Made by a program: the position numbers and the translations under genes
The notes under the pieces: model-generated
The model's input: the letters and a program-made list of their open reading frames with translations, nothing else
Told to the model about the DNA's origin: nothing
The model's database searches: none
Part shown: positions 34,756 through 55,777 of the stretch, one piece after another
How the letters are laid out: every line of letters begins with the position of its first letter
Position numbering within the stretch: position 1 is the stretch's first letter
NCBI RefSeq assembly: GCF_014636315.1
Contig: NZ_BMED01000008.1
Location: 140,506 to 204,505 of the forward strand
Length of the DNA: 64,000 nucleotides
Direction: 5' to 3'
From: Parundibacterium terreum
GTDB taxonomy: Bacteria; Pseudomonadota; Gammaproteobacteria; Burkholderiales; Burkholderiaceae_D

Positions 34756-34776
34756 AGATGACCAAGAGGTACAAAA

Positions 34777-35118: not shown

Positions 35119-35132
35119 TCTGGCTGATACTG

Positions 35133-35175
35133 AAAAAAACCTGGCATCCTGTAAAGGATGCCAGGTTTTTGTTTT
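35133..35175. terminator. Bidirectional terminator between fliE and ycgR
   Basis: A 12-bp perfect stem (35139-35150 with 35155-35166) with GTAA loop is flanked by an A run on the left and T runs on the right. It ends fliE on the plus strand and ycgR on the minus strand. Confidence 0.93.
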
Positions 35176-35176
35176 T

Positions 35177-35938: not shown

Positions 35939-35999
35939 ATACGTTTGTGGTGACCTGAAATGGATGAGTGGGAAATGTGCTTCCAGCCTGATTTCCGGA

Positions 36000-37491: not shown

Positions 37492-37496
37492 AGTGA

Positions 37497-37835: not shown

Positions 37836-37837
37836 CG

Positions 37838-38359
37838 TTAAACACTCACAAAAGAATATTTATTAGGGGCAAGTGCGTCATAGGCCGACATTTTTGGTCC
37901 TGCAGATTTTCCGCTCGCGGTGCTTGCATTGGTAGTGTCGGGGCCGCCAGCATCTGCGGTGCCTGCGCTACCGTTACCTATCGCATCCCACGCGGTTTTC
38001 AAATCAGTGAGCAAGGTATGGACTTCTTCCAGTATCTTTACGTCGTTTTTCAAGTTCGCTTCCAGCAGGCGCGCACTCATGTATTCATACAGCGCATCCA
38101 GGCTTTCTGCGATGTCGCCGCCGGCATTCTTGTCCAGGCTGGCACGCAGGCCGCCGTCAATGATCAGGATTGCCTTGGAAATGGACATGCCTTTTTCGGG
38201 GATGTTACCTTCCGCCATTTGTTGCATCGCTGTCTTGATGGCGACCAATGCACCCTCAAACAGCATGACTATCAGCTTGTGCGGGCTGGCAGCAGCCACC
38301 CCGGTTTCCATGCCTACTTTTGCGTAGGCATTTGCACCATTACGTATGGAACCAAACAT
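37838..38359 (-). CDS. fliS: Flagellar export chaperone FliS
   Basis: Binds flagellin in the cytosol and keeps it from polymerising. The N-terminal 125 residues are a standard FliS helix bundle (ANAYAKVGMETGVAAASPHKLIVMLFEGAL, ISKAILIIDGGLRASLD). An unusual 45-residue Ala/Gly/Thr/Ser-rich tail follows. The ATG at 38359 has AGGAG 8 bases upstream; a TTG directly before it could also be read as the start. Confidence 0.94.
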   Translation of the reverse strand: MFGSIRNGANAYAKVGMETGVAAASPHKLIVMLFEGALVAIKTAMQQMAEGNIPEKGMSISKAILIIDGGLRASLDKNAGGDIAESLDALYEYMSARLLEANLKNDVKILEEVHTLLTDLKTAWDAIGNGSAGTADAGGPDTTNASTASGKSAGPKMSAYDALAPNKYSFVSV

Positions 38360-38401
38360 CAATAACTCTCCTGGTAATCCTTGAAATAGTCAGCGTGACC
38401 G

Positions 38402-40414: not shown

Positions 40415-40520
40415 GAATGCCTCCGACTAAAACTATAATGTATCTGATAGCGGGCTATTCCAAAGCGACCTAAAGAGGGGAGAATTACCTGCTATTTCGA
40501 GATTCGATATAAGAATGCTA

Positions 40521-40919
40521 TCAAGCTTTTTGCTTGATCAGCACACCTTGCAGTTTGTTTTGCAGATCATCCAGGGCCTTGGAGATTTCCAGCGCTTCTT
40601 TGGATGGCATCTGACGTATTACTTCCTTGGTTTTCTGGTCAACTACCTTGACTATAGCGCGGTCCGCGTCCGAGTCAAATGAAAATTCCAGGTCTTGAGA
40701 GAAAGAGGACTTCAGCATGTCATTGATGCTTTTGACTGCCTGGGTGACTTGTGCAGTAGTAGGGGCAGGGGATGGTTGCTTTATATCAGTAGCCTCTACA
40801 ACAGGGGCGACGGCTGCCTTGACAGGCACTGCAGGGCTTGCTGTATCGGTGCCGTAAGCGCCAATACTCGCTGCACGCGACGCGGCTGAACTAGCTCCGC
40901 CGGTAGGTGATATATCCAT
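40521..40919 (-). CDS. flaG: Flagellar protein FlaG
   Basis: A 132-residue small FlaG-family protein. A variable Ala/Pro/Thr-rich N-terminus precedes the conserved domain (about 60-130) with LEFSFDSDADRAIVKVVDQKTKEVIRQMPSKEAL. FlaG influences filament length in some bacteria. Lies between fliC and fliD. Confidence 0.92.
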   Translation of the reverse strand: MDISPTGGASSAASRAASIGAYGTDTASPAVPVKAAVAPVVEATDIKQPSPAPTTAQVTQAVKSINDMLKSSFSQDLEFSFDSDADRAIVKVVDQKTKEVIRQMPSKEALEISKALDDLQNKLQGVLIKQKA

Positions 40920-40943
40920 GATTGCTCCCTCTATGACAATAAG

Positions 40944-40968
40944 CCTGGCAGAAAGAATTTCTGCCAGG
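40944..40968 (-). terminator. Hairpin between fliC and flaG
   Basis: An 11-bp perfect stem (40944-40954 with 40958-40968) with a GAA loop lies 26 bases after the fliC stop. On the minus strand it is followed only by CUUAUUGU, so termination is probably partial. It may also protect the abundant fliC mRNA 3' end. Confidence 0.6.
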
Positions 40969-40994
40969 ACTTATTTACCGTACTATTTTTCCGA

Positions 40995-42446
40995 TTAACG
41001 TAACAGCGCTAACACGCCGTTAGGCAGCGAGTTCGCTTGCGCCAACATCGCAGTACCAGCTTGTTGCAGGATCTGGCCACGTGTCAGATTGGCTGTTTCT
41101 GCTGCAAAGTCTGTATCCTGAATACGGCTGCGGGAAGCAGACAAGTTTTCAGAAGTAGTTTGCAGGTTAGTAACAGCGCTGCTGAAACGTGATTGTAAAG
41201 CACCGAATGTAGCACGTTGGCCGTTGACTGCGGACAAAGCGGAGTCGATAACCTTCAATGCATCTGTTGCGCCTTTAGCGGACGAAACGTCGATGTTGGA
41301 CACAGTGTTCAAAGTAGCAGAGTTTGCAGTGAAGTCTGTTGCACCTGCAATGTTACCAACGGTGAAGCCTTTGTCCGAGTTCATGACAACATAACCCAGC
41401 GATTTGGATGTTGTACCGCCATTTGCAACGGCCGCATCTACCGCACCTTGCGCATTACCAGAAGCATCCAGATTCTGGTTATCGAAAGTTGCTGTTGCTG
41501 CAGTACTATTGTTAGTAATAGCAATGTTGTTACCGCTTGCGTTGGTCAGGATCAGTGCATCGTTTGTCGAGTTCAACTTGGCGGTTACGCCTGTTTTGGA
41601 AGAAGCGTCATTGATTGCCGATACTGCTGTTGCCAGGCCGCTAGCGTCCAGATTGGCGCCAACAGTGAAAGTAACGTTGGCTGCGGTAGAGTTGTCGGAT
41701 ACCAGGCCCAGAGAATAGGACTGACCTGCGACAAATTTTACCTGTGTATCTGTTTGTGCTGTTGCGCTCACACCGGTTGTGTCGGAAACGCTATTAATCG
41801 ACGTTGCGACTGTTTTTGCTGTGTCAGTTGCTGAAACGTTGATTGTTTTTGTTGCCAAACCTTGGATGTCGAAAGTACCAGCTGCGTAGGCGGCTGTGGC
41901 ACTTGCTGCTACACCGTCAGTAGAGAAAGCATTGTTACCATAGCTGTTTGTACGGAAGTTTGCTGTTGTCGCTGTAATCGTTTGACCGGCGTTAGCACCA
42001 ACTTGGAAAGATGTAGTACCAAAGCTGCCGTCCAGCAGGTTCAAGCCGTTGAACTGTGTAGTTTGAGCTGTACGGTCCATCTCGGAGATCAGCTGGCCAA
42101 CCTCTTTCTGGATCGCTGCACGGTCAGTTGCTGTATTGGAGCCGTTGGCGGACTGTACGGCCAGTTCACGAATACGTTGCAAGTTATCGCCTGTGGTTGC
42201 CAAAGCACCCTCAGCAGTTTGCATCAGGGAGATACCGTCGTTTGCGTTACGGCTAGCTTGTGACAGACCGTTGATCTGAGCAGTGAAACGATCGGCAATC
42301 GCCAAGCCTGCAGCATCGTCTTTTGCGCTGTTAATACGCAGACCGGAAGACAAGCGCTGGATCGAAGTGTTCAGGGACGATTGTGAAGTCGTCAGGTTAC
42401 GCTGAGCATTGAGTGAAGCAATATTGGTATTAATTACTGAAGCCAT
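40995..42446 (-). CDS. fliC: Flagellin FliC
   Basis: The filament subunit, 483 residues. The start is MASVINTNIASLNAQRNL (42446), with AAGGAG before it; eight upstream codons are open but atypical. D0/D1 terminal domains are strongly conserved (LSSGLRINSAKDDAAGLAIADRF near residue 40, and SRIQDTDFAAETANLTRGQIL near the end). The central domain (about 180-390) is variable and rich in Thr, Ser, Ala and Asn, typical of the exposed surface. No second flagellin gene is in the window. FliA-type promoter at 42547-42573. Confidence 0.97.
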   Translation of the reverse strand: MASVINTNIASLNAQRNLTTSQSSLNTSIQRLSSGLRINSAKDDAAGLAIADRFTAQINGLSQASRNANDGISLMQTAEGALATTGDNLQRIRELAVQSANGSNTATDRAAIQKEVGQLISEMDRTAQTTQFNGLNLLDGSFGTTSFQVGANAGQTITATTANFRTNSYGNNAFSTDGVAASATAAYAAGTFDIQGLATKTINVSATDTAKTVATSINSVSDTTGVSATAQTDTQVKFVAGQSYSLGLVSDNSTAANVTFTVGANLDASGLATAVSAINDASSKTGVTAKLNSTNDALILTNASGNNIAITNNSTAATATFDNQNLDASGNAQGAVDAAVANGGTTSKSLGYVVMNSDKGFTVGNIAGATDFTANSATLNTVSNIDVSSAKGATDALKVIDSALSAVNGQRATFGALQSRFSSAVTNLQTTSENLSASRSRIQDTDFAAETANLTRGQILQQAGTAMLAQANSLPNGVLALLR

Positions 42447-42976
42447 GTTGATTCTCCTTACCGAAGTCATTAAATTTGGCGGAACACGCCTTAAACTTTG
42501 GTCTGCCTCGTAAAGACTAAGACAATCGGACCGCCGTTGCTAAGTGATATCGGACGGACTCCCAAAATGTTTAACTAGTTTCTGCAGATAAATATTTTTT
42601 TTTGGCCTTCAATTTATATTGATTACTTCGCTCTACGGCGTTATCTGAAAATACTTTAGGGTAAATTTTCAGTTAATTTTCGCAATGTTTTTTCTGTTCA
42701 TAACCCCAAACCTTGGAGAAAAAATAGATTTCTTGTCGTGTTTAAGCTTATTTGAGAATTTAATTTTAAGAAAAATTAAAATTAAGACAACTCAATTCAA
42801 ATTCCGGCGCTATTTACTTACTGAATAAAGCTTTTTTGATCACCAGAAATAAGGGGGAATTGCCGTTGATTTTATAAAATTGCTTTTGGGAAATATAATT
42901 TATTGTCTATGTGCAACAATTAGGCGATGGAATATTCTTTTTGCTGCAACTTTATCTACTATCCCGAAAGACATTT
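42447..42976. other. AT-rich gap between fliC and the PEP-CTERM gene
   Basis: About 530 bases without a gene, clearly AT-richer than its surroundings. It holds the fliC promoter and leader on the minus strand and a TATAAT at 42894-42899, which may belong to the plus-strand PEP-CTERM gene, although no good -35 box stands 17 bases before it. Confidence 0.4.
42547..42573 (-). promoter_or_regulatory. FliA (sigma-28) promoter of fliC
   Basis: On the minus strand TAAACATT (42573-42566), 11 bases, TCCGATAT (42554-42547) matches the sigma-28 pattern TAAAGTTT-N11-GCCGATAA with exact spacing. A start near 42540 leaves a leader of about 95 bases before the fliC ATG. Confidence 0.82.
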
Positions 42977-43803: not shown

Positions 43804-44601
43804 TTAACGCAACACATCGCGGATCTTATTGAATGCCGTCAGGTAATGTGCAACATTGGGATTGTCATTCATGGCCATTTTCAGGGCGTCGCTGACCACG
43901 GCTTCATGCTCAAACTGGTTCAGGCGAGTGGATGACCAGGCGCAGGCGAAGGTATTGTAGGCCCACACTTTCCAGTCGCTATTGCTCTTTAATAGTAAAG
44001 AAGCAATCCGCTCCATCAGGAATACTTTTCTTTCCACGTCTTCGTAGCTGGTCGTATGGCAAAGCCGGGCCTTCAATTCGCTGTCCGGACCCTCGCAAAT
44101 TGCGTACATGGCTTCATTAATCTGCAGCCACTGGCGCCAGAACGCTGGCCGCGCGACGAAAAAATTGCTGAATACAATATGGCGGGAGTCCATGATCAGG
44201 CCGGCCAACCGCAAGGGCTTGCCTATCGCGGCCAGAAAATCCTCGCCGGTCTGCGTGAAACCTTGGTCAAACAACTCATTCTGCTCGAAGACATTCAGGA
44301 AGAATGCGCCCATGTCAGCCTGCGGGCTGAAGGTGATGACATCCGTGTCGGCGGGGGAGGACAGTATGAACTGGACGGTCTGTGCATGCGAAAGCCCGGT
44401 CTTGGCACGGAACTTGGGTGAGAAAAAACCGTAAAAGCACTCCTCGTCCAGCGTTTCACTCAATAGGAAATTACGGATGGGGTAGTATTCACGCCAATCC
44501 GCCCGTGGATTGTCAGTGATATTCAAGGCGGAGTAACCCGCTTCCATATTGGCCAGGATTTGTTCGGAATAGGCTATCTGGTAGAGCTTGACTTGGCGCA
44601 T
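43804..44601 (-). CDS. Conserved hypothetical protein next to the GT41 gene
   Basis: A 265-residue soluble protein that I cannot assign to a named family. It starts MRQVKLYQIAYSEQILANMEAGY and includes DWREYYPIRNFLL and FFSPKFRAKTGLSHAQTVQFI, which give it a globular, aromatic-rich look. No signal peptide, membrane segment or repeat is seen. It lies 70 bases after the TPR/GT41 gene on the same strand. I have an impression that similar proteins occur in surface-glycan loci of betaproteobacteria, so a role in protein or glycan modification is possible but unproven. Confidence 0.75.
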   Translation of the reverse strand: MRQVKLYQIAYSEQILANMEAGYSALNITDNPRADWREYYPIRNFLLSETLDEECFYGFFSPKFRAKTGLSHAQTVQFILSSPADTDVITFSPQADMGAFFLNVFEQNELFDQGFTQTGEDFLAAIGKPLRLAGLIMDSRHIVFSNFFVARPAFWRQWLQINEAMYAICEGPDSELKARLCHTTSYEDVERKVFLMERIASLLLKSNSDWKVWAYNTFACAWSSTRLNQFEHEAVVSDALKMAMNDNPNVAHYLTAFNKIRDVLR

Positions 44602-44671: not shown

Positions 44672-46501
44672 CTATGCAGTTTGTTTTAACTCAGCCAGCA
44701 AACGCGTGATGACCGCATCAAAGTCGGCCACAAATTTATGCGTATTCAGTGCCGCGCTATTTTGCTTGGCTGCCTTCAGTATGTCGCTGCTTTGCGCTTG
44801 TTGCTGCGGGCTGAGCGCAAAGGCAACGGCCTTGTCTTCATACTCTGCATGCGTATCGGCGATCAGGCTCTCCAGCCCGACCGAGCGCAGTATGCTGCCG
44901 GCCATGCGCGAGGTATAGCTGCGTCCAGATAAGGTCACCAGCGGCAGACCCACCCAGACGGCATCGTTGGCGGTTGTGCCGGCATTGTAGGGGAATGTGT
45001 CCAGGAACAAATCGGCCGAGCAGAATCGCGATAGGTAATCGGTAGGAGACACTCTGCCGGCAAAAAACAGGCGGTCGGGGTCGATGCCATGTGCTTGTGC
45101 CGCATTGCGCATGTTTTGCTCGGACCATTGATTGTCCTTCAGTAGCCACAATACACTGTCCGGAACCCGGCGCAGTATGCGCATCCATGACTCGAATACT
45201 TCAGGGATGATCTTGTAGTTGTTGTTGAAGGCGCAGAAAACGAACTTATCTTCCGGCAGTCCGTAATGCGCTTTTTTCTTTTCGCTGGAATATTCGCGCT
45301 GGTCATCGCTGACCTGGTAGCAGTCCGGCATATACAGCGGCTTTTCGGTGAAGTGCTGTGCCAGCTCCGGCGGATAGATATACTCATCGCCGATGACGTA
45401 ATCGACATAGGGCAGTGCGGAAGTGCCGGGATAGCCCAGATAGGCGATCTGTATGGGAGCAGGGCCGCGGGCCACGATATTCGGGCGCGTGCCTGCAGTC
45501 AGCCCCTGCAGATCGAACAGGATGTCTATTTCCTGCTTCTGGATCAGCTCTGCTGCTTTTTCATCGCTGGTACCGGCGATGTCGTAGTATTTATCAAAGG
45601 ATGAGAATACGCGGTGCTGGAAGGGCGTGCCGTCCCGGTTGCTCCAGCCGAAACCTATCACTTCATACTTGTTGCGATCGAGGAGTTCAAAGAAGCGCAC
45701 CGTCAACAGTGATAAGGCATGCAGGCAGAAGTCGCCGGACAGGAAACCGATTTTCAGCTTCTTATGCTCAGGATAAAGCCGGCCGAACGGCATCATGCGC
45801 GGCACGTCGATGACATTCTTGCTCACATAATTGCGCGCGGTTTCCAGCAGGCGGGCGGGGTCGTCGGTCAGGCCGAGCAGGGCCAGCGGCGAGGCCGCCT
45901 GCCACATGTTTTCAACGGAAATGCCGGGCAGCTTGCGCAGGCTGGGCCATTTGCATTGTTTTTGCCGCAGGTGTATCCAGTGGTACAGCGCTGCCGGCTG
46001 CTCCTGGTTCAATTCCAGGCTGCGCCTCAATACGTCCTCGGCCTCGTCATACTCTTTGAACTTGTCCAGCAGCCTGCCCATGCCGTTCAGCAGCATGATG
46101 TGAATGCCATTATTCTGCGCATCCTTGAGCGCCGGCTCGGCTAGCGAGGCGCGCCATTGCTTGATGGTTTCCTGGAAGTGGCCCTGGCGTTCCAGATGAA
46201 CGCCGACATTGTATTGGGCCTGGAAGAAATCCGGCTTCAGATGCGCCGCCTGGCGAAACGCCGCTACGGCTTCGGAGGAGCTGCCGACTTCACCCAGCAG
46301 CACCCCCAGGTTGAAATAGGCGGCATGCTCAAGCGCCCGCTCCGGGTGCTTGAGCCAGGCCCTGTAGAGATCAATCGCCTTAGCCTGTTGCTGCGTGCGG
46401 ATCAGTTGCTCCGCCATCGGGATGACTTTTAACAGCTCAAGCTTGCCTTGCAGGGCCAGCGCAAGAAGTTCGTCGTAGTTAGTTTGTTCTGAGTTGGACA
46501 T
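44672..46501 (-). CDS. TPR-containing O-GlcNAc transferase-like glycosyltransferase (GT41)
   Basis: A 609-residue protein with N-terminal tetratricopeptide repeats (about 20-185, e.g. AAYFNLGVLLGEVGSSSEAVAAFRQAAHL) and a C-terminal SPINDLY/OGT-type catalytic domain (about 245-600). Conserved stretches are KIGFLSGDFCLHAL, ILFDLQGLTAGTRPNIVARGPAPIQIAYLGYPGTS and LFLDTFPYNAGTTANDAVWVGLPLV. It should transfer a sugar (GlcNAc or similar, from a UDP donor) to Ser or Thr of proteins in the cytosol. Candidate substrates are flagellin, whose gene is about 2 kb away, and the Thr-rich repeat protein encoded directly upstream in the transcription sense. Confidence 0.9.
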   Translation of the reverse strand: MSNSEQTNYDELLALALQGKLELLKVIPMAEQLIRTQQQAKAIDLYRAWLKHPERALEHAAYFNLGVLLGEVGSSSEAVAAFRQAAHLKPDFFQAQYNVGVHLERQGHFQETIKQWRASLAEPALKDAQNNGIHIMLLNGMGRLLDKFKEYDEAEDVLRRSLELNQEQPAALYHWIHLRQKQCKWPSLRKLPGISVENMWQAASPLALLGLTDDPARLLETARNYVSKNVIDVPRMMPFGRLYPEHKKLKIGFLSGDFCLHALSLLTVRFFELLDRNKYEVIGFGWSNRDGTPFQHRVFSSFDKYYDIAGTSDEKAAELIQKQEIDILFDLQGLTAGTRPNIVARGPAPIQIAYLGYPGTSALPYVDYVIGDEYIYPPELAQHFTEKPLYMPDCYQVSDDQREYSSEKKKAHYGLPEDKFVFCAFNNNYKIIPEVFESWMRILRRVPDSVLWLLKDNQWSEQNMRNAAQAHGIDPDRLFFAGRVSPTDYLSRFCSADLFLDTFPYNAGTTANDAVWVGLPLVTLSGRSYTSRMAGSILRSVGLESLIADTHAEYEDKAVAFALSPQQQAQSSDILKAAKQNSAALNTHKFVADFDAVITRLLAELKQTA

Positions 46502-46821: not shown

Positions 46822-49800
46822 TTACTTGTGGCTTGGTGCCAGGATTCCATTGTTGTTTGGATTCAGGATACCTTGTCCACCGCCAGTTTGGCCTGCCAAC
46901 ATTGCCGGTGTGCCGGAGCCGTTGACCAGATTGCCATTGGCATCGAAGTTTTTCATCACATCGACGATGGTCGCCACGTTTGCCGCCGTAGAGGCATTCG
47001 AGCTGGAGTTTCCACCCAATACGCCGCTGATGGCAGGCGCGCCGGCTGCAGCTGTCTGTGCACTATCGAAGGCACCGATGGCTTGCGACAAGCTGCTGAC
47101 ATTGGATTTCAGGTCTGCAGGCTGTTGGTTCTTGTCTGCAACAAACCAGACGTCACCCATCGCATGTGTCTTGCCGTCGGCGGTTTCGTAGCTGGAAACC
47201 AGACCCAGCCAGTTGCCGTTATCCTTGACCGAAGTTTTGGATGCGTCAAGATTCAGCTTGGTGATGCCCAGGTCGGTCAGGGAAGAGAGTTCCCCGGCTT
47301 CGCTGATACCGTCTGAGTTCTTGTCTACCCATACCTTCAGATCGCCGAAGGCGGTGTCTGCGCTGGAGATGACGTTGTCATGGTTGCTGTCCAGCTCGCT
47401 CAGTGCTGCATAACCATCAGACGCTTTGCCGCCTGTGGACGTGTTGGTTGCATTTCCGAACAGTTCCGAACCGTCGTTGATGATGCCGTCATGGTTGCGA
47501 TCCAGTACCAGCAAGCCGTCGCTGGAAGAAACCCAGCCAGTATTGACCTTGTTGCCGCTTGCAAACAGATCGAACTCAACGCCGGACGCGATGCTCTGCG
47601 TTTTGATGCCGTCGCCATTCAGATCCAGAATGATAGGCGAAGTCACTTTCAGGTGAGAGATCTGTGCAGTGGTGAACGCAGGGATCTGGTCACTGGTCAG
47701 GGCCATGGTTTGTGTCGATGACAGGGCTTCTACCTGAGCAGTCGTCAACGCAACGATCTGGTCTGTCGTCAGGTGGCTGACTTGAGAAGTCGTCAAGTGG
47801 TTGATCGCGCTGGTCGTCAGGGCTTTAACGTCCTGAGTTTCCATTGCTTGCAACTGGTCGGTCGTCAAGGCCGCTACCTGCGCAGTCTTCATTGCGGCGA
47901 CCTGAGCAGTCGTCAACGCAACGATCTGGTCGGTGCTCAATGCTTTGGAGACTTGATCTGTCGTCAATGCGCCGATTTCAGCAGTAGTCAAAGCAGCGAT
48001 CTGCGCTGTTGTGAAGCCTTTGGAGATCTGGTCTGTCGTCAGGGCAGCAACTGCGTTGGTGCTCAGTGCGGCGACATCACGTGTTTCCAGAGCGTGAACC
48101 TGGTCAGTCGTCAACGCTACAACTTGCGATGTTTTCAGCGATGCAACCTGTGCAGTCGTCAATGCAACGACCTGGTCTGTCGTCAGGCCTTTGGAGACTT
48201 GATCTGTCGTCAAAGCGCCAACTTCAGCGGTAGTCAATGCAGCGATTTGCGCTGTAGTCAGACCTTTGGAAACCTGGTCTGTCGTCAACGCAGCGACGTT
48301 AGCGGAGCCCAGTGCAGCGACATCGCGTGTTTCCAGAGCAGCGACCTGGTCTGTCGTCAACGCTACAACTTGCGATGTTTTCAGCGCGCCGACTTGTGCT
48401 GTGGACAGAGCCACAACCTGGTCGGTGGTCAGACCTTTGGAAATCTGGTCTGTCGTCAATGCAGCGATAGAGGCGGTAGTCATTGCAGCCAGATCACGTG
48501 TTTCCAGAGCAGCGACTTCGTCTGTCGTCAATGCAACAACCTGGGTCGTTTTCAGGCCGGCGACTTGTGCGGTAGTCAAAGCAACGACTTGATCCGTGGT
48601 CAGACCTTTGGAGATCTGATCGGTGGTCAGGGCATTGATCTGGCCGGTAGTCATTGCAGCAACCTGCGCAGCGCTCAGACCTTTGGAGATCTGGTCTGTC
48701 GTCAATGCAGCAACAGCGGCGGTAGACAGGGAGGCAACGTCGCGTGTTTCCAGCGCAGCAACCTGGTCTGTCGTCAAGGATGCAACCTGTGCTGTTTTCA
48801 GCGCAGCGACCTGGGTGGTAGACAGGGCCACAACCTGGTCGGTCGTCAGGCCTTTGGAGACCTGGTCAGTTGTCAACGCAGCGACTTCAGCAGTGGTGAA
48901 TGCAGCAACTTGTGCCGCAGTCAGGCCTTTGGAGATCTGGTCGGTAGTCAGTGCAGCAACGTTAGCAGAACCCAGCGCAGCAACATCGCGTGTTTCCAGA
49001 GCGTGAACCTGGTCGGTAGTCAGAGCGACAACCTGTGCAGTTTTCAACGCGCCTACCTGGGCAGTGGACAATGCCACGACCTGGTCAGTAGTCAGGCCTT
49101 TGGAGATCTGGTCTGTGGTCAACGCAGCGATTGCAGCAGTGCTCAAGACAGCCAGGTCACGTGTTTCTATCGCTGCTACCTGGTCGGTAGACAGAGCGAC
49201 AACCTGAGATGTTTTCAGAGCGCCGACTTGGGCTGTAGTCAATGCGACTACTTGGTCAGTGGTCAGGCCTTTGGAGATCTGGTCTGTCGTCAACGCAGCG
49301 ATTTCAGCGCTGGTCAACGCAGCAACTTGCGCGGTGCTCAGACCTTGAGAGATCTGGTCGGTAGTCAACGCAGCAACGTTGGCGGTACCCAGTGCAGCAA
49401 CGTCGCGTGTTTCCAGAGCGTGAACCTGATCAGTGCTCAATGCCACAACTTGCGATGTTTTCAGTGCGCCGACTTGAGCGGTAGACAGAGCCACAACCTG
49501 GTCAGTAGTCAGGCCTTTGGAGATCTGGTCTGTTGTCAATGCAGCGATTGCAGCGGTGCTCAGGACAGCCAGGTCGCGTGTTTCCAATGCAGCGATCTGG
49601 TCAGTAGAGAAGGCTACGATCTGAGCTGTTTTCAGAGCGCCGACTTGTGCTGTAGTCAGTGCCACTACTTGATCAGTAGTCAGACCTTTGGAGATCTGGT
49701 CGGTTGTCAATGCGCCGATTTGCGCGCTGGTCATTGCACCTACTTGGGAAGCGCTCAAACCTTTGGAGATTTGGTCGGTAGACAAGGCGGCAACTGCAGC

Positions 49801-51936
49801 GGTGGACAGGGCCGCAACATCGCGAGTTTCCAGAGCAGCGACTTGATCTGTGGACAGAGCAGCTACTTGAGCTGTTTTCAGTGCGCCGACTTGTGCAGTA
49901 GTCAAGCCTACAACCTGATCCGTGGTCAGACCTTTGGAGATCTGGTCTGTAGTCAAGGCAGCGACTTCAGCGGTTGTAAAGGCGGCAACTTGCGCTACTG
50001 TCATGCCCAGGGAAATCTGGTCTGTAGACAGAGCTGCAACATTGGCAGTACCCAATGCAGCGACATCGCGTGTTTCCAGAGCGTGAACCTGATCGGTGCT
50101 CAATGCTACAACTTGCGATGTTTTCAGAGCGCCGACTTGTGCTGTAGACAGCGCTACGACCTGGTCAGTAGTCAGGCCTTTGGAGATCTGGTCTGTTGTC
50201 AATGCAGCGATTGCAGCGGTACTCAAGACAGCCAGGTCACGTGTTTCCAGTGCAGCGATCTGGTCGGTAGACAATGCTACAACTTGCGCTGTTTTCAGTG
50301 CACCAACTTGTGCTGTGGTCAGTGCCACGACTTGATCAGTAGTCAGACCTTTGGAGATCTGGTCTGTCGTCAACGCAGCGATCGCGGCGCTGGTCAGGGC
50401 AGCGACTTGCGCAGTGCTCAAACCTTTAGAAATCTGGTCTGTGGTCAATGCTGCAATATTGGCCGAGCTCAGAGCGGCGATGTCACGTGTTTCCAGTGCA
50501 CGTACCTGATCGGTGCTCAAGGCAACAACTTGCGCGGATTTCAATGCGCCGACTTGTGCAGTAGACAGGGCAACGATTTGATCTGTTGTCAGACCTTTGG
50601 AGATTTGGTCTGTTGTCAACGCAGCGATTGCAGCGGTGCTCAAGACAGCCAGGTCACGTGTTTCCAATGCAGCGATCTGGTCGGTAGACAAGGCTACAAC
50701 CTGGGCTGTTTTCAGCGATGCTACCTGGGCTGTGGTCAGTGCCACGACCTGGTTAGTAGTCAGGCCTTTAGCAACCTGGTCTGTTGTCAATGCGCCGATT
50801 TGCGCACTTGTCAACGCAGCTACTTGGGCAGTGCTCAGGCCTTTGGAGATCTGGTCGGTAGACAGGGCGGCAACGGCACCGGTGGACAGGGCAGCAACGT
50901 CGCGGGTTTCCAGCGCAGCCACCTGGTCGGTCGTCAAGGATGCAACCTGTGCTGTTTTCAGCGAAGCTACTTGTATTGTGGTCAATGCAACGACCTGGTC
51001 AGTAGTCAAGCCTTTGGAGATTTGGTCAGTCGTCAGCGCGCCAACTTCAGCGGTGGTGAAGGCAGCTATTTGTGCAGCAGTCAAACCTTGGGAAATCTGG
51101 TCTGTAGACAGTGCTGCAACGTTGGCAGAACCCAATGCAGCAACGTCGCGTGTTTCCAGTGCGTGAACCTGGTCAGTAGTCAGCGATGCAACTTGCGCCG
51201 TTTTCAGTGCACCGACTTGTGCGGTAGTCAGGGCAACGACTTGATCAGTGGTCAAGCCTTTAGAGATCTGGTCTGTCGTCAGGGCGTTGATTGCTGCTGT
51301 AGTCAGCGCAGCCAGATCACGTGTTTCCAGTGCAGCTACCTGGTCAGTCGTCAATGCAACGATCTGGCTGGTTTTGATGCCGGCAACTTGTGCAGTGGTC
51401 AGGGCGACAACTTGGTCAGTAGTCAGGCCTTTGGAGATCTGGTCTGTAGTCAACGCATTGATTTCGCCTGTGGTCATGGCGGCAACCTGTGCAGCGCTCA
51501 AGCCTTTAGAAATCTGGTCGGTAGTCAGTGCAGCAATATTGGTAGTACCCAAAGCGGCGACATCGCGAGTTTCCAGCGCGTGTACCTGATCGGTAGTCAA
51601 TGCAATGATCTGGGAGGTTTTCAGTGCAGCTACTTGCGCTGTCGTGAGGCCAACTACTTGATCAGTGGTCAGAGCCAGCCTGATCTGGTCAGTGGTCAGT
51701 GCTGCGATAGTGGAGGTGGTGAACGCAGCAACGTCGCGTGTTTCGAAAGCGGGGATCTGATCTGTAGTGAATGCAACAATCTGAGAGGTTTTAAAAGCAC
51801 CGACTTGAGCAGTAGTCAACGCAATGATTTGATCAGTCGACAAAGCGATGATGTCATCAGTTGAGGCACCGGCAATTTGGGCTGTAGTGAGCGCAGCGAT
51901 TTGCGCGGTGGTCATACTTGAAAAAATCGAACTCAT
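46822..51936 (-). CDS. Giant repeat protein, candidate type I secretion substrate
   Basis: A 1704-residue protein with no signal peptide. Residues 1-1426 are about 174 copies of an 8-residue unit, consensus ALTTDQVx with Ala, Lys, Glu or Ser at set positions. They form 10 leading units, 18 long modules of 57 residues, 11 short modules of 25, and 5 trailing units. Each module opens with a 9-residue SKGLTTDQV-like unit. The C-terminal 278 residues contain four calcium-type loops (DLNGDG near 1438, DRNHDG near 1479, DSNHDN near 1516, DKNSDG near 1538), a module I associate with type I-secreted proteins. RTX nonapeptides are absent. ABC transporter and HlyD genes lie directly upstream. GGAGG stands before the ATG. 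Function unknown; adhesin or matrix protein is inferred. Confidence 0.85.
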   Translation of the reverse strand: MSSIFSSMTTAQIAALTTAQIAGASTDDIIALSTDQIIALTTAQVGAFKTSQIVAFTTDQIPAFETRDVAAFTTSTIAALTTDQIRLALTTDQVVGLTTAQVAALKTSQIIALTTDQVHALETRDVAALGTTNIAALTTDQISKGLSAAQVAAMTTGEINALTTDQISKGLTTDQVVALTTAQVAGIKTSQIVALTTDQVAALETRDLAALTTAAINALTTDQISKGLTTDQVVALTTAQVGALKTAQVASLTTDQVHALETRDVAALGSANVAALSTDQISQGLTAAQIAAFTTAEVGALTTDQISKGLTTDQVVALTTIQVASLKTAQVASLTTDQVAALETRDVAALSTGAVAALSTDQISKGLSTAQVAALTSAQIGALTTDQVAKGLTTNQVVALTTAQVASLKTAQVVALSTDQIAALETRDLAVLSTAAIAALTTDQISKGLTTDQIVALSTAQVGALKSAQVVALSTDQVRALETRDIAALSSANIAALTTDQISKGLSTAQVAALTSAAIAALTTDQISKGLTTDQVVALTTAQVGALKTAQVVALSTDQIAALETRDLAVLSTAAIAALTTDQISKGLTTDQVVALSTAQVGALKTSQVVALSTDQVHALETRDVAALGTANVAALSTDQISLGMTVAQVAAFTTAEVAALTTDQISKGLTTDQVVGLTTAQVGALKTAQVAALSTDQVAALETRDVAALSTAAVAALSTDQISKGLSASQVGAMTSAQIGALTTDQISKGLTTDQVVALTTAQVGALKTAQIVAFSTDQIAALETRDLAVLSTAAIAALTTDQISKGLTTDQVVALSTAQVGALKTSQVVALSTDQVHALETRDVAALGTANVAALTTDQISQGLSTAQVAALTSAEIAALTTDQISKGLTTDQVVALTTAQVGALKTSQVVALSTDQVAAIETRDLAVLSTAAIAALTTDQISKGLTTDQVVALSTAQVGALKTAQVVALTTDQVHALETRDVAALGSANVAALTTDQISKGLTAAQVAAFTTAEVAALTTDQVSKGLTTDQVVALSTTQVAALKTAQVASLTTDQVAALETRDVASLSTAAVAALTTDQISKGLSAAQVAAMTTGQINALTTDQISKGLTTDQVVALTTAQVAGLKTTQVVALTTDEVAALETRDLAAMTTASIAALTTDQISKGLTTDQVVALSTAQVGALKTSQVVALTTDQVAALETRDVAALGSANVAALTTDQVSKGLTTAQIAALTTAEVGALTTDQVSKGLTTDQVVALTTAQVASLKTSQVVALTTDQVHALETRDVAALSTNAVAALTTDQISKGFTTAQIAALTTAEIGALTTDQVSKALSTDQIVALTTAQVAAMKTAQVAALTTDQLQAMETQDVKALTTSAINHLTTSQVSHLTTDQIVALTTAQVEALSSTQTMALTSDQIPAFTTAQISHLKVTSPIILDLNGDGIKTQSIASGVEFDLFASGNKVNTGWVSSSDGLLVLDRNHDGIINDGSELFGNATNTSTGGKASDGYAALSELDSNHDNVISSADTAFGDLKVWVDKNSDGISEAGELSSLTDLGITKLNLDASKTSVKDNGNWLGLVSSYETADGKTHAMGDVWFVADKNQQPADLKSNVSSLSQAIGAFDSAQTAAAGAPAISGVLGGNSSSNASTAANVATIVDVMKNFDANGNLVNGSGTPAMLAGQTGGGQGILNPNNNGILAPSHK
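47659..51918 (-). repeat. Nested tandem repeat array, 24/171/75-bp periods
   Basis: The DNA coding for the repeat protein is a hierarchical tandem array: a 24-bp unit, grouped into 171-bp (57-codon) and 75-bp (25-codon) modules. A marker string CCTTTGGAGATCTGG or close variants recurs at most module joins (e.g. 48025, 48187, 48429, 48606). Copies differ mainly at third codon positions. Such an array is prone to slippage and unequal recombination. Confidence 0.95.
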
Positions 51937-52304
51937 ATTGCAACCTCCAGAGAGCTACCTGTTTTAGTGATATTTATCCACACCAAACCAGCATCATGAA
52001 ACTTGATACTGGGCTAATGCGGAAGTGAATTTTATTGCGACAGTAAGTAATGGCGACAGAAAATCTTTGGTTCTTAAATGAAATAAGAGGATTTTTTATT
52101 CTCAGATTTTCATCAAGAAAGCCGTCAAAATTTCTACTTTGATCGGCCTCTGGACATTTAACGGCAGGAAATTTTGAATGTTTAGGGTAGTTCGAAAAAA
52201 AATTTCCGTGCGGTATTATTAATTTGCAGGAAGAACTACCCTATTTGACATGATAGGGTTTGGGAAAGCGCTGCACAGGCGTGGAGTGCTGTGCTTATAC
52301 TTGT
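51937..52304. other. Intergenic region between hlyD and the repeat gene
   Basis: 368 bases without a gene, AT-rich. It contains competing dyads at 52183-52259 and a purine-rich ribosome site (GGAGG) just before the repeat gene. A separate promoter for the repeat gene may lie here, because no strong terminator follows hlyD. Confidence 0.45.
52183..52259. promoter_or_regulatory. Three-part dyad that can form alternative hairpins
   Basis: TAGGGTAGTTC (52183-52193) is complementary to GAACTACCCTA (52233-52243), whose part ACCCTAT (52238-52244) is also complementary to ATAGGGT (52253-52259). The middle element can pair with only one partner at a time, as in an attenuator, or the elements could be repeated operator half-sites. 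Confidence 0.4.
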
Positions 52305-53663
52305 TTAAGGTTCGCGAAGACCTTCGTCCAGTGCCTTGGTGAGGGGCCATAACAGGTAAGACATTACAGAGCGTTTGCCGACGACGATCTCAGCAGAAAG
52401 AGTCATACCAGGCAAAAGCCTTGCCTTTTCCGTCATTTTTTTCAAGCCGACCTTGCCTATGCCCAGCCTGCTGACATAGTAGGCATCCAGTCCCTGGCCC
52501 AGATTGCCGGCATCGCGCTTGAAGGCATCTTCACTGATGGTGCGGACTTCCGCTGATAAGGTGCCATGCTGCTGGAAGGGGAAGGCATCCAGCTTCACAT
52601 GCACTTTGTCATGCAGCTTGATATAGCCCACATCGACGGAGTCAATCTGTACTTCCGCCTCAAGCTCGGTGCCTACCGGTACCAGCGTGAACAGCGGCTC
52701 TGCTTCTTTGATGATGGAGCCGAGTGACAATTTCGCAATATCCAGCACTACGGCATCGGAAGGTGCGACCAGCGTGATCAATTTGTTACGGCGGTCAGCT
52801 TTTTGTAATTGTTCTGTCACAGAGTTGCGGTCCCGAGTGGTGGATAGCAAATCTTCCATCGCTTTTTGTCGCCAGCTTTTCTCAAAGGCTGCTTTTTCTG
52901 CAGTCGAGCCCGCCAGTTCGCGCTTGATTTCATTTTCGCGATTCTTGGTATTGAGCATTTCCCTTTCGACTTCAAGACGTTTGTCCTGTGCTGCCAGGTA
53001 GTTGGCGCGGGCGCCGTATTGTTGTTCTACCAGCTTTTCCTGCATTGCTTCCATTTCGCGCAGATACTGCACGCGCGATTCCAGCAACTGCTGGTCTTTG
53101 CGGTTGGTTTCCAGTGAAGCACGCAAGCGGGCGACTGTTTCTTCCAGCCTGGTTAATTGGGCCTGGTAGTTGGCCTGGCGTTCCAGCGAGAGCCTTGCCT
53201 GCAACTGTGTATCGGCATTGGCAGCCGGCGTATTTGGATTCTTTGCGCCGCCGAGTTCCGCTTCCAGGTTTTTGGATTGCGTTTCCAGGCTGCTTAGCCG
53301 GCTTTTCAGCTCAGCCTGGTCTGCCCCGGCAAAGGTGGCGTCCAGCACTGCCAGTACTTGCCCTTTTTTTACGACTTGGCCTACCTGCACGTTGATGGTC
53401 TGGATGATAGAGGTTTCCAGCGGCTGCACGATGATATTGGAAGAGGGCGTTACCAGCTTGCCGCGCGCAACAACTACCTTATCAATTTTCGCAAAAGAGG
53501 CAAAAATGATAAATGTGAAGAGGCCTGCCACCAGCACCAGCAAGGTAATACGTGCCAGGCGCGGCAGAGGGCGGCGTTCGATTTCGTCTGCGTCAGGCAG
53601 GAATTCGACGACGGTCAGGTCCTCGGCGGCCTTGTTTACAGGTGGCTTGTTTGTTGATTCCAT
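52305..53663 (-). CDS. HlyD-family type I secretion periplasmic adaptor
   Basis: A 452-residue membrane fusion protein. A short cytoplasmic N-terminus and one membrane segment (about 38-60, ITLLVLVAGLFTFIIFASF) are followed by a lipoyl/barrel region, a long coiled coil (about 120-300) and the C-terminal barrel ending in RLLPGMTLSAEIVVGKRSVMSYLLWPL. It links the ABC transporter to a TolC-type outer-membrane channel, whose gene is not in the window. Overlaps the transporter gene by 28 bases. Confidence 0.94.
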   Translation of the reverse strand: MESTNKPPVNKAAEDLTVVEFLPDADEIERRPLPRLARITLLVLVAGLFTFIIFASFAKIDKVVVARGKLVTPSSNIIVQPLETSIIQTINVQVGQVVKKGQVLAVLDATFAGADQAELKSRLSSLETQSKNLEAELGGAKNPNTPAANADTQLQARLSLERQANYQAQLTRLEETVARLRASLETNRKDQQLLESRVQYLREMEAMQEKLVEQQYGARANYLAAQDKRLEVEREMLNTKNRENEIKRELAGSTAEKAAFEKSWRQKAMEDLLSTTRDRNSVTEQLQKADRRNKLITLVAPSDAVVLDIAKLSLGSIIKEAEPLFTLVPVGTELEAEVQIDSVDVGYIKLHDKVHVKLDAFPFQQHGTLSAEVRTISEDAFKRDAGNLGQGLDAYYVSRLGIGKVGLKKMTEKARLLPGMTLSAEIVVGKRSVMSYLLWPLTKALDEGLREP

Positions 53664-55777
53664 AGATGTGCATAAGTAGAGCTACTGATGAGCAATTCGG
53701 AATGGCGGCCGCTATCGACCAGCTTCCCTTGTTGCATGACCAGGATGGCATCGGCGTTGACCAGGGTCGACAGCCTGTGCGAAATCATGATGACCGTCCT
53801 GCCCACGGCGATACGGGACAGGTTATTGATGAAGATTGCTTCGCTTTCCGGATCCAGCGCGCTGGCGGCCTCATCCAGGATCAGCACCGGCGGATTGGAC
53901 AGTAGCGAACGGGCAATGGACAGCCTTTGCTTTTGGCCGCCACTGAGGTTGGCCGCATTTTCTTCCAGCAGCGTATCGTAACCCTGTGGCATTCTTTCGA
54001 TGAATTCATCGGCGCCGGCCGCTTGCGCAACGGCGACGATCTCTTCAAAAGTGGCGTCCGGCTTGGTCGCAGAGATGTTTTCGCGTATCGAGCCGCGGAA
54101 CAGGAAATTTTCCTGCAAGACCACGCCTACCTGTTTGCGCAGGTGAGACAGATCTATTTCGCGCGAATCTATGCCGTCAAAACGGATGATACCTTCTTGT
54201 ATTCCGTACAAGCCCTGGATCATCTTGGTCAGCGTGGTCTTGCCGGAACCGCTGCGGCCGACAATGCCGATCACCGTGCCGGACTGGATTGTGAACGTGG
54301 TCCTGTCCAGTGCCGTGTTCGTCGCGCCGGGATAGCGGAAGGTCACATTGTCAAAGCTGATCTCGCCCTTGAACTGCGGGCGCAGGCCACCTGCACCGGC
54401 GCGTCCTTCAGGTGGACGATTCATCACCTCGCCCAGCATGCGTACCGACAGGGCCGTTTCCTGGTATTCATTGACCAGGCTGACTATCTGCACCAGCGGC
54501 GAGACCACGCGGCCGGAAATCATCTGGAAGGCGATCAATGCGCCGACTGTCATGGTCTGGTCAAATACTGCCTGCGCGCCGATGACGATGATGATCACAG
54601 GCAGCAGCTTGCCCAGGAAATCGGTAATGGCATTGGCGGTAATGGAAATCTGGCCTACCTTGAAATGGCTGCTGATCGCATCTGCCGAACGCTGGTCCCA
54701 GGTTTTCCTTTGTATCGGTTCTATCGCCAGTGATTTCACCGTGCGCATGCCGTGTATGGTTTCCACCAGCATGGCCTGGCGCTTGCCTTCGGCCGTGTAC
54801 ATTTTGTTCAGCCGGCGCTGATAGGTCGGTACCAGAATGGCAACCACGCCGCCTATCAATACCGTAAACATCAGTGTGATGCCGGCCAAAGGCACGGAGT
54901 AGGTAAACAACAAGGGAAGGAACAGGAACAGCGCGGTGGCGTCCAGGCCGATAAAAAACAGGCGGCCAGTCAGGAACTGGCGTATCCGCTCCAGTTGCTG
55001 CATATGGCGGGTAATCACGCCGGCAGTCGTTGTCTCGAAATAATCGATGGGCAGTGAAATCAGATGCGAGAACACGCGCCGGGTCAGCCGCATGTCTATC
55101 TTGTTGGTCGCAGCCAGCGTCAGGTATTGGCGCAAGAAGCCGAAGGTGGCGTCAAACATCAATGCCAGCACCACGCCCACGCCCAGCACCCATAGCGTTG
55201 AATTACTCTGGTGTACCAGCACCTTGTCCAGCACCAGCTGGAAGAAAATCGGCGATGATAGCGCCAGTACGTGCAGGCACAGCGCCGCAATGATGATGTC
55301 GCGAAAAGCCGCCTTCTGTTTCAATATTTCAGGAATGAACCAGCGCAGCCCAAAAGGCTGGTTGGGGTCGGTGATGGCATGTTGCCGTTTCAATAGCACG
55401 ACCTCGCCACCCCAGCGGCTGCAGAACTGCTCCTTGTCCACGACAATAACGGTGGCGCGGTCTGCCTTGGGGTCAAGGATGGCAACCTTGCCATCGCCTT
55501 CCTTGCGTACGCCGACGATGATCACGCCTTCGCCGGTGTTCAGCCTGCCCAGGATAGGGAATACGCCGGCCTGGCCCATCAGGGTTTGCCAACTGAATTT
55601 CTCGGTCTTTGCTTTCAGGCCTATTTCAGAAGCGATGCGTTCCAGCATGGCGGCTGGCGGGTCTTCTGCAGCCAGCGCATAGTCGTCGATCAGCCGCTCA
55701 GGGTTGATCTGCAGCCCATGATGCTGCGCAATCGCAGTCAGACACTGAATTACCGAGTGAGGAAATTTTTCTTGCAT
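53636..55777 (-). CDS. Type I secretion ABC transporter (HlyB-like, inactive C39 domain)
   Basis: A 713-residue exporter with an N-terminal C39-like domain (about 5-130), six membrane helices (about 150-440) and an ATPase domain (about 465-710) with Walker A GRSGSGKTT, signature LSGGQKQRLSIARSLL and Walker B VLILDEAASALD. Aligning HSVIQCLTAIAQHHG to the C39 motif puts Ser8 at the catalytic cysteine, and the catalytic histidine region (GVIIVGVR) lacks His. The domain is therefore the non-cleaving, substrate-docking kind found with large C-terminally signalled substrates, consistent with the repeat protein downstream. Confidence 0.94.
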   Translation of the reverse strand: MQEKFPHSVIQCLTAIAQHHGLQINPERLIDDYALAAEDPPAAMLERIASEIGLKAKTEKFSWQTLMGQAGVFPILGRLNTGEGVIIVGVRKEGDGKVAILDPKADRATVIVVDKEQFCSRWGGEVVLLKRQHAITDPNQPFGLRWFIPEILKQKAAFRDIIIAALCLHVLALSSPIFFQLVLDKVLVHQSNSTLWVLGVGVVLALMFDATFGFLRQYLTLAATNKIDMRLTRRVFSHLISLPIDYFETTTAGVITRHMQQLERIRQFLTGRLFFIGLDATALFLFLPLLFTYSVPLAGITLMFTVLIGGVVAILVPTYQRRLNKMYTAEGKRQAMLVETIHGMRTVKSLAIEPIQRKTWDQRSADAISSHFKVGQISITANAITDFLGKLLPVIIIVIGAQAVFDQTMTVGALIAFQMISGRVVSPLVQIVSLVNEYQETALSVRMLGEVMNRPPEGRAGAGGLRPQFKGEISFDNVTFRYPGATNTALDRTTFTIQSGTVIGIVGRSGSGKTTLTKMIQGLYGIQEGIIRFDGIDSREIDLSHLRKQVGVVLQENFLFRGSIRENISATKPDATFEEIVAVAQAAGADEFIERMPQGYDTLLEENAANLSGGQKQRLSIARSLLSNPPVLILDEAASALDPESEAIFINNLSRIAVGRTVIMISHRLSTLVNADAILVMQQGKLVDSGRHSELLISSSTYAHLWNQQTSHL

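What the first reader, a model, noticed from the sequence alone, without database searches (positions are those of the whole stretch)
46822..55777. Dedicated type I secretion locus for a giant 8-residue-repeat protein
An HlyB-like exporter with a non-catalytic C39 domain, an HlyD adaptor and a 1704-residue protein lie in a row on one strand. The large protein is 84% repeats of an 8-residue Thr-rich unit, has no signal peptide and no RTX nonapeptides, and ends in a region with four Asp-rich calcium-type loops. I cannot match the repeat to a named structural family. The Thr-x-x-Gln pattern resembles a helix-capping box, so short helices in a solenoid are conceivable, but a beta solenoid is also possible.
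Basis: partly seen in the sequence, partly recalled or inferred. Interest (0 to 1): 0.75.

Follow-up and report, generated by a model that had tools for sequence, protein, structure and literature searches.

The report
Exported helical-screw protein with sugar transferase
A bacterial gene cluster appears to make a giant protein built from about 170 tiny eight-residue helices, probably attach sugars to it with an enzyme encoded next door, and export it through its own transporter.

Summary
In detail: an HlyB-like exporter whose C39-like domain lacks the peptidase residues, an HlyD adaptor, and a 1704-residue protein that is 83% Thr-rich octads without RTX repeats. Additions: (1) The repeat has a name, Pfam PF20080 ALTTAQ_rpt; one confident model of five shows one short helix per octad. 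(2) The calcium-loop region is homologous to the FrpC self-processing module (E 3e-38), but its scissile Asp is Ser; 48 of 49 ALTTAQ modules have Thr/Ser there, while 15 of 29 other modules have Asp. It probably folds with calcium without cutting. (3) The next gene is an OGT-like GT41 glycosyltransferase. GT41 neighbours ALTTAQ or its exporter gene in 13 of 26 sampled ALTTAQ-bearing genomes; in 21 named ones it is next door in 2 and within 20 kb in 11. Flagellin-linked GT41s fall in another clade, but some loci, the window's included, lie beside flagellin. Best reading: a glycosylation-plus-type-I-secretion locus for a giant surface protein. Secretion, glycosylation and function are inferred. 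New variant of a known kind.

The parts
46822..51936 (-). ALTTAQ giant protein, 1704 aa, proposed exported substrate
   Evidence: ORF; PF20080 E=0, 1168.6 bits, 52 stretches
47662..51912 (-). about 170 Thr-rich octads (residues 9-1425); one short helix each in the modelled 196-residue part
47638..47640 (-). codon of Ser1433, at the place of the scissile Asp414 of FrpC (Ser-Pro instead of Asp-Pro)
   Evidence: alignment to 6sjw/6sjx starts at the Pro; coordinate; family count
47131..47637 (-). SPM-like domain with four Asp loops, residues 1434-1602
   Evidence: phmmer to FrpC SPM 6sjw, E 2.9e-38
46825..47130 (-). C-terminal tail (residues 1603-1704) ending NNGILAPSHK, proposed secretion signal
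   Evidence: tail kept in two ALTTAQ proteins without an SPM (L072); end motif in 20 of 23 gene ends on loci with a >=60% exporter homologue, 0 of 4 with a distant one
52305..53663 (-). HlyD-family periplasmic adaptor
   Evidence: TIGR01843, 311.9 bits, above its cut-off of 208.65
53636..55777 (-). HlyB-like exporter ATPase/permease
   Evidence: PF00664, PF00005, PF03412; best NCBIfam TIGR01846, 641.6 bits, below its cut-off of 725.55
55382..55753 (-). C39-like domain of the exporter (residues 9-132), not a peptidase by eye
   Evidence: PF03412 range; best solved match HlyB 8dck, E 8.4e-6
44672..46501 (-). GT41 (OGT-like) TPR glycosyltransferase, 609 aa, proposed to glycosylate the octads
   Evidence: PF13844; XcOGT 2jlb E 8e-78; His and Lys of the active site kept by eye; locus association
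43804..44601 (-). 265-aa protein with no significant Pfam, NCBIfam or solved-structure match; beside the GT41 gene in some loci
   Evidence: next to GT41 in L082 and L084
40995..42470 (-). flagellin next to the locus; the rival target of the GT41
   Evidence: PF00669/PF00700; 2.2 kb from the GT41

Best explanation
This is a dedicated type I secretion locus for a giant ALTTAQ protein, with its own cytosolic O-glycosyltransferase. Shown by sequence or model: (a) about 170 Thr-rich octads, each predicted (in the part modelled) as one 4-7-residue helix, stacked into a helical screw; (b) near the C-terminus a domain homologous to the FrpC self-processing module that keeps the calcium-loop residues but has Ser in place of the scissile Asp; (c) a C-terminal tail whose end motif recurs in relatives; (d) HlyB-like exporter, HlyD adaptor and GT41 genes that recur with ALTTAQ genes. 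Inferred: the exporter reads the C-terminal tail and sends the unfolded chain out; the SPM-like domain emerges early, binds calcium and folds without cutting itself, doing the seeding or anchoring job that RTX repeats do elsewhere; the screw then folds. Before export the GT41 enzyme glycosylates some of the roughly 350 Ser/Thr of the repeat. The product is a long, possibly sugar-coated filament or adhesin at the cell surface.
For: Repeat: PF20080. Fold: best model pLDDT 92.2, 24 helices in 196 residues; sequence match of the repeat to the solved chain HeliScrew4, E 9.4e-15. SPM: 6sjw E 2.9e-38. Of 49 distinct SPM stretches in ALTTAQ ORFs, 48 have Thr (35) or Ser (13) before the Pro and one has Asp; of 29 other SPM stretches 15 have Asp (two rows assigned by eye; Fisher p 2e-7). 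Exporter: beside ALTTAQ genes in named Duganella, Rugamonas and Pseudoduganella genomes and others and in unnamed ones; 12 of the 15 family genomes with an exporter hit over 900 bits are PF20080-positive. Tail: end motif in 20 of 23 gene ends on loci with a >=60% exporter homologue, 0 of 4 with a distant one, 8 of 25 with none in the stretch (the motif was drawn from these same ends). GT41: ALTTAQ-ALTTAQ-GT41-ABC-HlyD in a row on one strand in L072; ALTTAQ-ABC-HlyD-TolC-GT41-265 aa in a row in L082. Of 26 PF20080-positive genomes (15 of 116 in the family sample; 11 others of 300 in the order sample) a GT41 gene lies next to ALTTAQ or its exporter gene in 13 and within 20 kb in 18. GT41 hits over 420 bits (a limit set after seeing the gap in scores): 15 of 116 family genomes, 13 of them PF20080-positive, Fisher p 2e-13, relatedness not corrected. 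In 21 genomes behind named ALTTAQ loci, 17 have a GT41 hit over 420 bits. GT41 tree: the window's row lies in a 100/100 clade of 21 rows, 15 ALTTAQ-linked by position; two more ALTTAQ-linked pairs lie elsewhere; all nine flagellin-linked rows lie in another 100/100 clade.
Against: No secretion, glycosylation or calcium data exist here. In the window the GT41 is also 2.2 kb from flagellin, beside a flagellar cluster; in G019 the GT41 is under 1 kb from a flagellin and 15.5 kb from the exporter gene. In G001 it is about 0.5 Mb away and in G027 36 kb; none was seen in the fetched flanks of G209, G297 and G385; G108, G303 and G353 were not resolved. G106 has the GT41 but no PF20080 match. Some ALTTAQ proteins (L080, L106, L118) end in repeats, with neither SPM nor tail. 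The first calcium loop is altered in several ALTTAQ SPMs (for example L015, L034, L119). Thr/Ser-Pro also occurs in 11 of 29 non-ALTTAQ SPMs. A distant genus has giant ALTTAQ ORFs with no SPM, exporter, adaptor or GT41 match in the fetched stretches. Four of five structure models had pLDDT 38-59 and no solved fold matched at E <= 0.001.
Confidence: 0.6

Rival explanations
1. The secretion locus and the glycosylation genes are separate: GT41 and the 265-aa protein glycosylate flagellin, like FlmG in Caulobacter, and ALTTAQ merely sits in the same motility island. The giant protein is exported unmodified.
For: Flagellin lies 2.2 kb from the window's GT41, under 1 kb from that of G019, and the flagellar cluster is adjacent. 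Flagellin genes also lie beside ALTTAQ loci in L083, L087 and L090. FlmG, a cytosolic O-glycosyltransferase with a TPR domain, modifies flagellins (PMC7591256, passages read).
Against: GT41 sits beside ALTTAQ or exporter genes with no flagellin hit in the same fetched stretch (L072, L082, L088, L102, L103, L106), though in G037 a flagellin follows about 5 kb on (L073). The nine GT41 rows labelled flagellin-linked fall in a separate clade (rows near both, like the window's, were labelled ALTTAQ-linked). ALTTAQ-linked GT41s arise in at least three places of the tree.
Confidence: 0.22
2. The SPM-like domain still self-processes by another chemistry at the Thr/Ser-Pro bond, releasing or cross-linking the screw.
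For: The Pro and many loop residues are conserved (Pro invariant in 27 of 27 rows), as if the junction matters.
Against: In the published mechanism the Asp side chain attacks its own carbonyl to form an anhydride (PMC7078468, passages read); Thr/Ser cannot form that anhydride (chemical inference). The uncleaved P415A form still folds with calcium, so conservation of the fold needs no cutting.
Confidence: 0.08
3. The repeat is a low-complexity spacer, disordered or a beta solenoid, and the model's helices are an artefact of a repetitive input.
For: Only one of five models was confident; no Foldseek PDB match at E <= 0.001; V/I/T-rich composition.
Against: Best model pLDDT 92; the 8-residue chain HeliScrew4 matches by sequence; the best, weak PDB fold match is mesothelin, described as a right-handed solenoid of 24 short helices (PMC10035497, abstract and passages).
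Confidence: 0.1

Closest known systems
Pfam PF20080 ALTTAQ_rpt
   Same: The repeat is a member: 52 stretches, 1168.6 bits against a cut-off of 26.4
   Different: Pfam names a repeat only. I found no paper on it in the held library: 'ALTTAQ' gave 0 papers; 'PF20080' gave 7 whose titles and abstract starts look unrelated (listing only)
Self-processing module of FrpC-type RTX proteins (6sjw/6sjx)
   Same: Homologous over about 170 residues; calcium-loop residues kept in the window protein
   Different: Ser-Pro (in relatives Thr/Ser-Pro) instead of Asp-Pro; no RTX repeats; module sits near the C-terminus behind octads
HlyBD-type type I secretion
   Same: Exporter with a C39-like, apparently inactive domain plus HlyD adaptor
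   Different: Non-RTX giant octad substrate; GT41 gene in or near the cluster; no TolC hit over 50 bits in window 36001-60000
OGT / GT41 (XcOGT 2jlb, human OGT, SPINDLY)
   Same: TPR plus GT41 domain, active-site His and Lys kept by eye
   Different: Linked to an exported repeat protein; donor sugar and target unknown
FlmG flagellin glycosyltransferase (PMC7591256)
   Same: Cytosolic O-glycosyltransferase with a TPR domain, acting before export (passages)
   Different: FlmG acts on flagellin; I made no sequence comparison with FlmG
HMW1 adhesin with HMW1C
   Same: Exported adhesin with a dedicated glycosyltransferase (PMC3012730, abstract start in search listing)
   Different: HMW1 uses two-partner secretion and Asn-linked sugars
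Mesothelin and the chain HeliScrew4 (9zem)
   Same: Solenoid of short helices (mesothelin); 8-residue repeat related by sequence (HeliScrew4, taken to be a designed protein from its name only)
   Different: Mesothelin match is weak (TM 0.43, rmsd 10); HeliScrew4 is not among the 50 Foldseek rows shown

Membership tests
ALTTAQ_rpt PF20080 | score over the gathering cut-off of 26.4 bits | tested here: met
   1168.6 bits, 52 stretches
HlyB/HlyD type I secretion system | exporter with C39-like domain, membrane domain and ATPase, plus HlyD adaptor | tested here: met
   PF03412, PF00664, PF00005; TIGR01843 above cut-off; TIGR01846 best but below its cut-off
HlyB/HlyD type I secretion system | outer-membrane TolC partner | tested here: inconclusive
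   no hit over 50 bits in window 36001-60000; TolC in the row in L082 (PF02321); own genome not searched for TolC
HlyB/HlyD type I secretion system | substrate actually secreted by this exporter | not testable with these tools
   needs an exporter-gene deletion
RTX proteins | GGxGxDxxx nonapeptide repeats | tested here: not met
   0 GGxGxD in the protein
FrpC-type self-processing module | homologous domain with four calcium sites | tested here: met
   E 2.9e-38 and loop residues kept in the alignment; site positions from PMC7078468; calcium binding itself not tested
FrpC-type self-processing module | scissile Asp-Pro bond | tested here: not met
   Ser-Pro in the window; Thr/Ser in 48 of 49 ALTTAQ SPM stretches
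GT41 glycosyltransferases | GT41 domain with active-site His and Lys (residue roles recalled) | tested here: met
   PF13844 2.7e-78; alignment to XcOGT
GT41 glycosyltransferases | activity on the ALTTAQ protein | not testable with these tools
   needs biochemistry
TAL effector repeats | score over the cut-off of 28 bits | tested here: not met
   15.6 bits
Mesothelin-like short-helix solenoid | significant fold match | tested here: inconclusive
   E 2.3e-3, probability 1.00, TM 0.43, rmsd 10

The most novel reading that the evidence does not exclude
A so far undescribed class of surface glycoprotein: OGT-like enzymes glycosylate Thr-rich octads in the cytosol, a dedicated type I exporter secretes the chain, and a cutting-dead SPM replaces RTX repeats as the calcium-triggered folding seed for a helical screw of hundreds of helices.
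Probability: 0.4. Interest if true: 0.75.

Novelty: new variant of a known kind. Interest (0 to 1): 0.6.

Why it matters
ALTTAQ proteins are very large and my literature searches found no described function for them. They occur in a minority of genomes (15 of 116 in the window's family sample, 12 of 300 in the order sample). Linking them to an OGT-like enzyme and an exporter gives the family a testable function, offers a substrate candidate for bacterial GT41 O-glycosylation, and points to natural SPMs that may fold without cutting. It would also be type I export with a calcium switch other than RTX repeats, and a natural eight-residue helical screw for repeat-protein work.

Tried and rejected
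Rejected: RTX toxin (no GGxGxD repeats). TAL-effector relation (15.6 bits, cut-off 28). HTH_25, LRR_EndoS and lanthipeptide-leader hits, which pass their cut-offs only as sums of short repeat matches; no stretch passes alone. Beta solenoid (model nearly all helix). Position 478 of the SPM as a second mark of lost chemistry: Asp-Pro SPMs vary there too (2 of 6 have Asp), so dropped.

Recounts. A first count by text pattern gave 40 ALTTAQ SPMs, all Thr/Ser, one of them (L037) a chance case; it missed SPMs whose first loop did not fit the pattern. I replaced it by an alignment-based count: 49 ALTTAQ stretches (at least 8 octad motifs in the ORF) and 29 others; L015 and L069 were assigned by eye. 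The one Asp case (L068, the same gene as the second ALTTAQ gene of L076) has decayed calcium loops. An earlier count said GT41 lies within 20 kb in 19 of 26 genomes; my recount is 18.

Led nowhere: fold of the 265-aa protein (structure queue full at every try); VIA-align second look (library not ready twice); a viral-library fold search, which gave 3 matches at E <= 0.001, all to unnamed-function uncultured phage proteins with TM at most 0.38. I did not try to name the window's organism.

Limits: the 20 control GT41 loci were chosen by me from the weaker hits, not at random. The GT41 tree used 54 of 55 rows (one dropped, under 140 bits); the GT41 of G019 is not in it. Gene maps come from ORFs and tblastn, not from annotation. 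The flagellin and PF20080 hit lists were cut short by the tool. PF20080 limits differed between samples (E 1e-6, 1e-8, 1e-10). That GT41 and ALTTAQ share a contig in named genomes rests on equal contig lengths.


Full report
Observation. On the minus strand the window holds an HlyB-like exporter (53636-55777), an HlyD adaptor (52305-53663, overlapping by 28 bases) and a 1704-aa protein (46822-51936). The exporter has C39-like, membrane and ATPase domains. Its C39-like domain matches HlyB best among solved chains; read by eye, it lacks Cys and His at the positions aligned with the peptidase motif (motif recalled). The large protein has octads with consensus T-T-x-Q-V-x-A-L from residue 9 to about 1425; a mechanical split gave 140 eight-residue and 28 nine-residue units plus two unsplit pairs. 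The array is built of 57- and 25-residue blocks with the best identity at lag 139 (0.67). There are 352 Ser/Thr in residues 9-1425.

What the repeat is. Pfam already holds it as PF20080 ALTTAQ_rpt. In the held open-access library 'ALTTAQ' gave 0 papers, 'HeliScrew' 0, and 'PF20080' 7 that look unrelated from the listing; subscription papers and preprints were not searched. AlphaFold2 on 196 residues, with six in-register copies from this same protein as alignment (A1), gave one helix of 4-7 residues per octad, 24 in all, pLDDT 92.2, pTM 0.84; the other four models scored 37.6-58.6, so this is one confident model of five. By sequence the repeat matches the solved chain HeliScrew4 (9zem), E 9.4e-15; repetitive sequence inflates such scores, and I take 'designed' from the name only. 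Foldseek found no PDB match at E <= 0.001; the best was mesothelin (E 2.3e-3, TM 0.43, rmsd 10), described as a right-handed solenoid of 24 short helices (PMC10035497, abstract and passages). The viral library gave three matches at E <= 0.001, to uncultured phage proteins (TM at most 0.38).

What the C-terminus is. Residues 1434-1602 match the FrpC self-processing module (6sjw, E 2.9e-38; 6sjx, E 1.8e-37). The four calcium sites described in PMC7078468 (passages read) align with Asp loops here. The scissile residue is Ser1433, not Asp. I aligned this domain to all loci held (window copies removed) and kept one entry per distinct stretch. Of 49 SPM stretches in ORFs with at least eight octad motifs, 35 have Thr, 13 Ser and 1 Asp before the Pro; of 29 others, 15 have Asp, 6 Ser, 5 Thr, 2 Arg, 1 Cys (L015 and L069 assigned by eye; Fisher p 2e-7, relatedness not corrected). 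The single Asp case has decayed calcium loops (L068/L076). The first loop is altered in several ALTTAQ SPMs too (for example L015, L034, L119), so calcium binding need not be uniform. The own genome has an Asp-Pro SPM in a frame with RTX motifs on contig C6. In the published mechanism the Asp side chain makes the anhydride, so the Thr/Ser modules probably fold but do not cut. Two ALTTAQ proteins in L072 lack the SPM and keep the tail; L080, L106 and L118 end in repeats with neither. A short end motif (G, one of FIYLMVW, L/F/M, A/G/T/S, then at most five residues) occurs in 20 of 23 gene ends on loci with a >=60% exporter homologue, 0 of 4 with a distant one, 8 of 25 with none in the stretch. 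The motif was drawn from these same ends. It fits a C-terminal secretion signal read by the cognate exporter.

The locus is wider than reported. Downstream lie a TPR-GT41 gene (44672-46501; XcOGT E 8e-78; active-site His and Lys kept by eye, roles recalled) and a 265-aa gene (43804-44601) with no significant Pfam, NCBIfam or PDB match. In 116 family genomes, 15 have PF20080 and 15 have a GT41 match over 420 bits (limit set after seeing the gap between 424 and 357 bits); 13 have both (Fisher p 2e-13, relatedness not corrected). In 300 order genomes, 12 including the own have PF20080 and 6 including the own a GT41 match at E <= 1e-110; without the own genome 4 have both, 1 GT41 only, 7 PF20080 only (p 5e-6). 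Over the 26 distinct PF20080-positive genomes a GT41 gene lies next to ALTTAQ or the exporter gene in 13 (G000, G037, G058, G065, G069, G081, G087, G089, G241, G243, G277, G290, G388) and within 20 kb in 5 more (G019, G040, G047, G113, G171). It is far off in G001 (about 0.5 Mb) and G027 (36 kb), not seen in the fetched flanks of G209, G297 and G385, and unresolved in G108, G303 and G353. Rows such as ALTTAQ-ALTTAQ-GT41-ABC-HlyD (L072) and ALTTAQ-ABC-HlyD-TolC-GT41-265 aa (L082) read like operons.

Named genomes. The fetched stretches of the 22 named ALTTAQ loci L014-L035 showed GT41 in only two (L028 and L032). I therefore searched the 21 genomes behind them. All 21 have a GT41 hit at E <= 1e-40 and 17 one over 420 bits, against 2 of 101 PF20080-negative family genomes (p 4e-15). 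In the other 10 the GT41 is on another contig or could not be placed; most of those ALTTAQ contigs are short, but those of L031 and L033 are long, so there it is truly elsewhere. Co-occurrence is thus strong, immediate adjacency less general.

Flagellin as the rival target. The window locus abuts a flagellar cluster and flagellin is 2.2 kb from the GT41; in G019 it is under 1 kb from the GT41. I fetched 20 weaker GT41 loci as controls and built a tree of 54 of 55 GT41 rows; rows near both ALTTAQ and flagellin were labelled ALTTAQ-linked. The window's GT41 lies in a 21-row clade (100/100): 13 ALTTAQ-linked, 2 linked at more than 8 kb, 6 unlinked in the fetched stretch. Five of those six come from genomes with PF20080 (L084, L111, L112) or a close exporter (L108 and L109, both of G009); L107 of G106 has neither. 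Two more ALTTAQ-linked pairs (L080+L118, L114+L028) sit elsewhere. All nine flagellin-linked rows (from eight genomes) lie in a separate 17-row clade (100/100), which also holds one ALTTAQ-linked row (L089_10876, beside a second GT41). The ALTTAQ label needs 7 changes against a shuffled mean of 15.4 (0 of 500 as low).

Limits of generality. A phylum sample found PF20080 in 6 of 299 genomes (own plus five of one distant genus). Those five have giant ALTTAQ ORFs without SPM, exporter, adaptor or GT41 matches in the fetched stretches, so the repeat is wider than this secretion-glycosylation package.

Verdict. The repeat has a family name, the calcium region has a known homologue with a telling change, and a GT41 goes with the locus. 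Secretion, glycosylation, calcium folding and surface role remain untested. I score interest 0.6: the parts are known kinds, but the combination, and the near-uniform absence of the scissile Asp, are undescribed as far as these searches show.

Noticed in passing
G000 contig C6:1449-3536 (L002, L003): The same genome carries two SPM matches in one frame with RTX motifs, one with an Asp-Pro and one with an Arg-Pro junction, so it may hold both a cutting SPM and the Ser-Pro one.
   Followed up: partly
L141-L156 (genomes G469, G492, G507, G518, G530): A distant genus has giant ALTTAQ ORFs (up to about 5,600 aa) without SPM, exporter, adaptor or GT41 matches in the fetched stretches.
   Followed up: partly
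L059, L061, L062, L064, L066: A second, non-ALTTAQ group of SPM proteins also has Thr-Pro (DAAITPI...) and no RTX motif in the stretch seen.
   Followed up: no
L078:15926-17746, L084:11441-13126 and three other loci: A protein cluster of about 560-600 aa with no Pfam match (one member tested) recurs in five loci, beside GT41 or the 265-aa gene in several.
   Followed up: partly
L089:2916-4652, L072:17899-19000: A TPR protein follows HlyD in the operon-like rows of two genomes of one genus.
   Followed up: no
genomes behind L017, L018/L022, L019, L020, L021, L024: Three GT41 genes lie within about 10-28 kb of each other on one contig.
   Followed up: no
G016:C130:37852-38343: An SPM match lies in an open frame of 12,663 residues.
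   Followed up: no
control genome Caulobacter vibrioides: PF20080 rings there but not at the stricter limits.
   Followed up: no
window 47773-51864, + strand: A 1363-residue antisense ORF is open across the repeat; it looks like an effect of the repeat's codon use, not a gene.
   Followed up: partly
window 27802-42470: A flagellar cluster (FliK-like twice, flagellar/T3SS-type ATPase, FliG, FliF, YcgR, FliD, FlaG, flagellin) adjoins the locus.
   Followed up: partly
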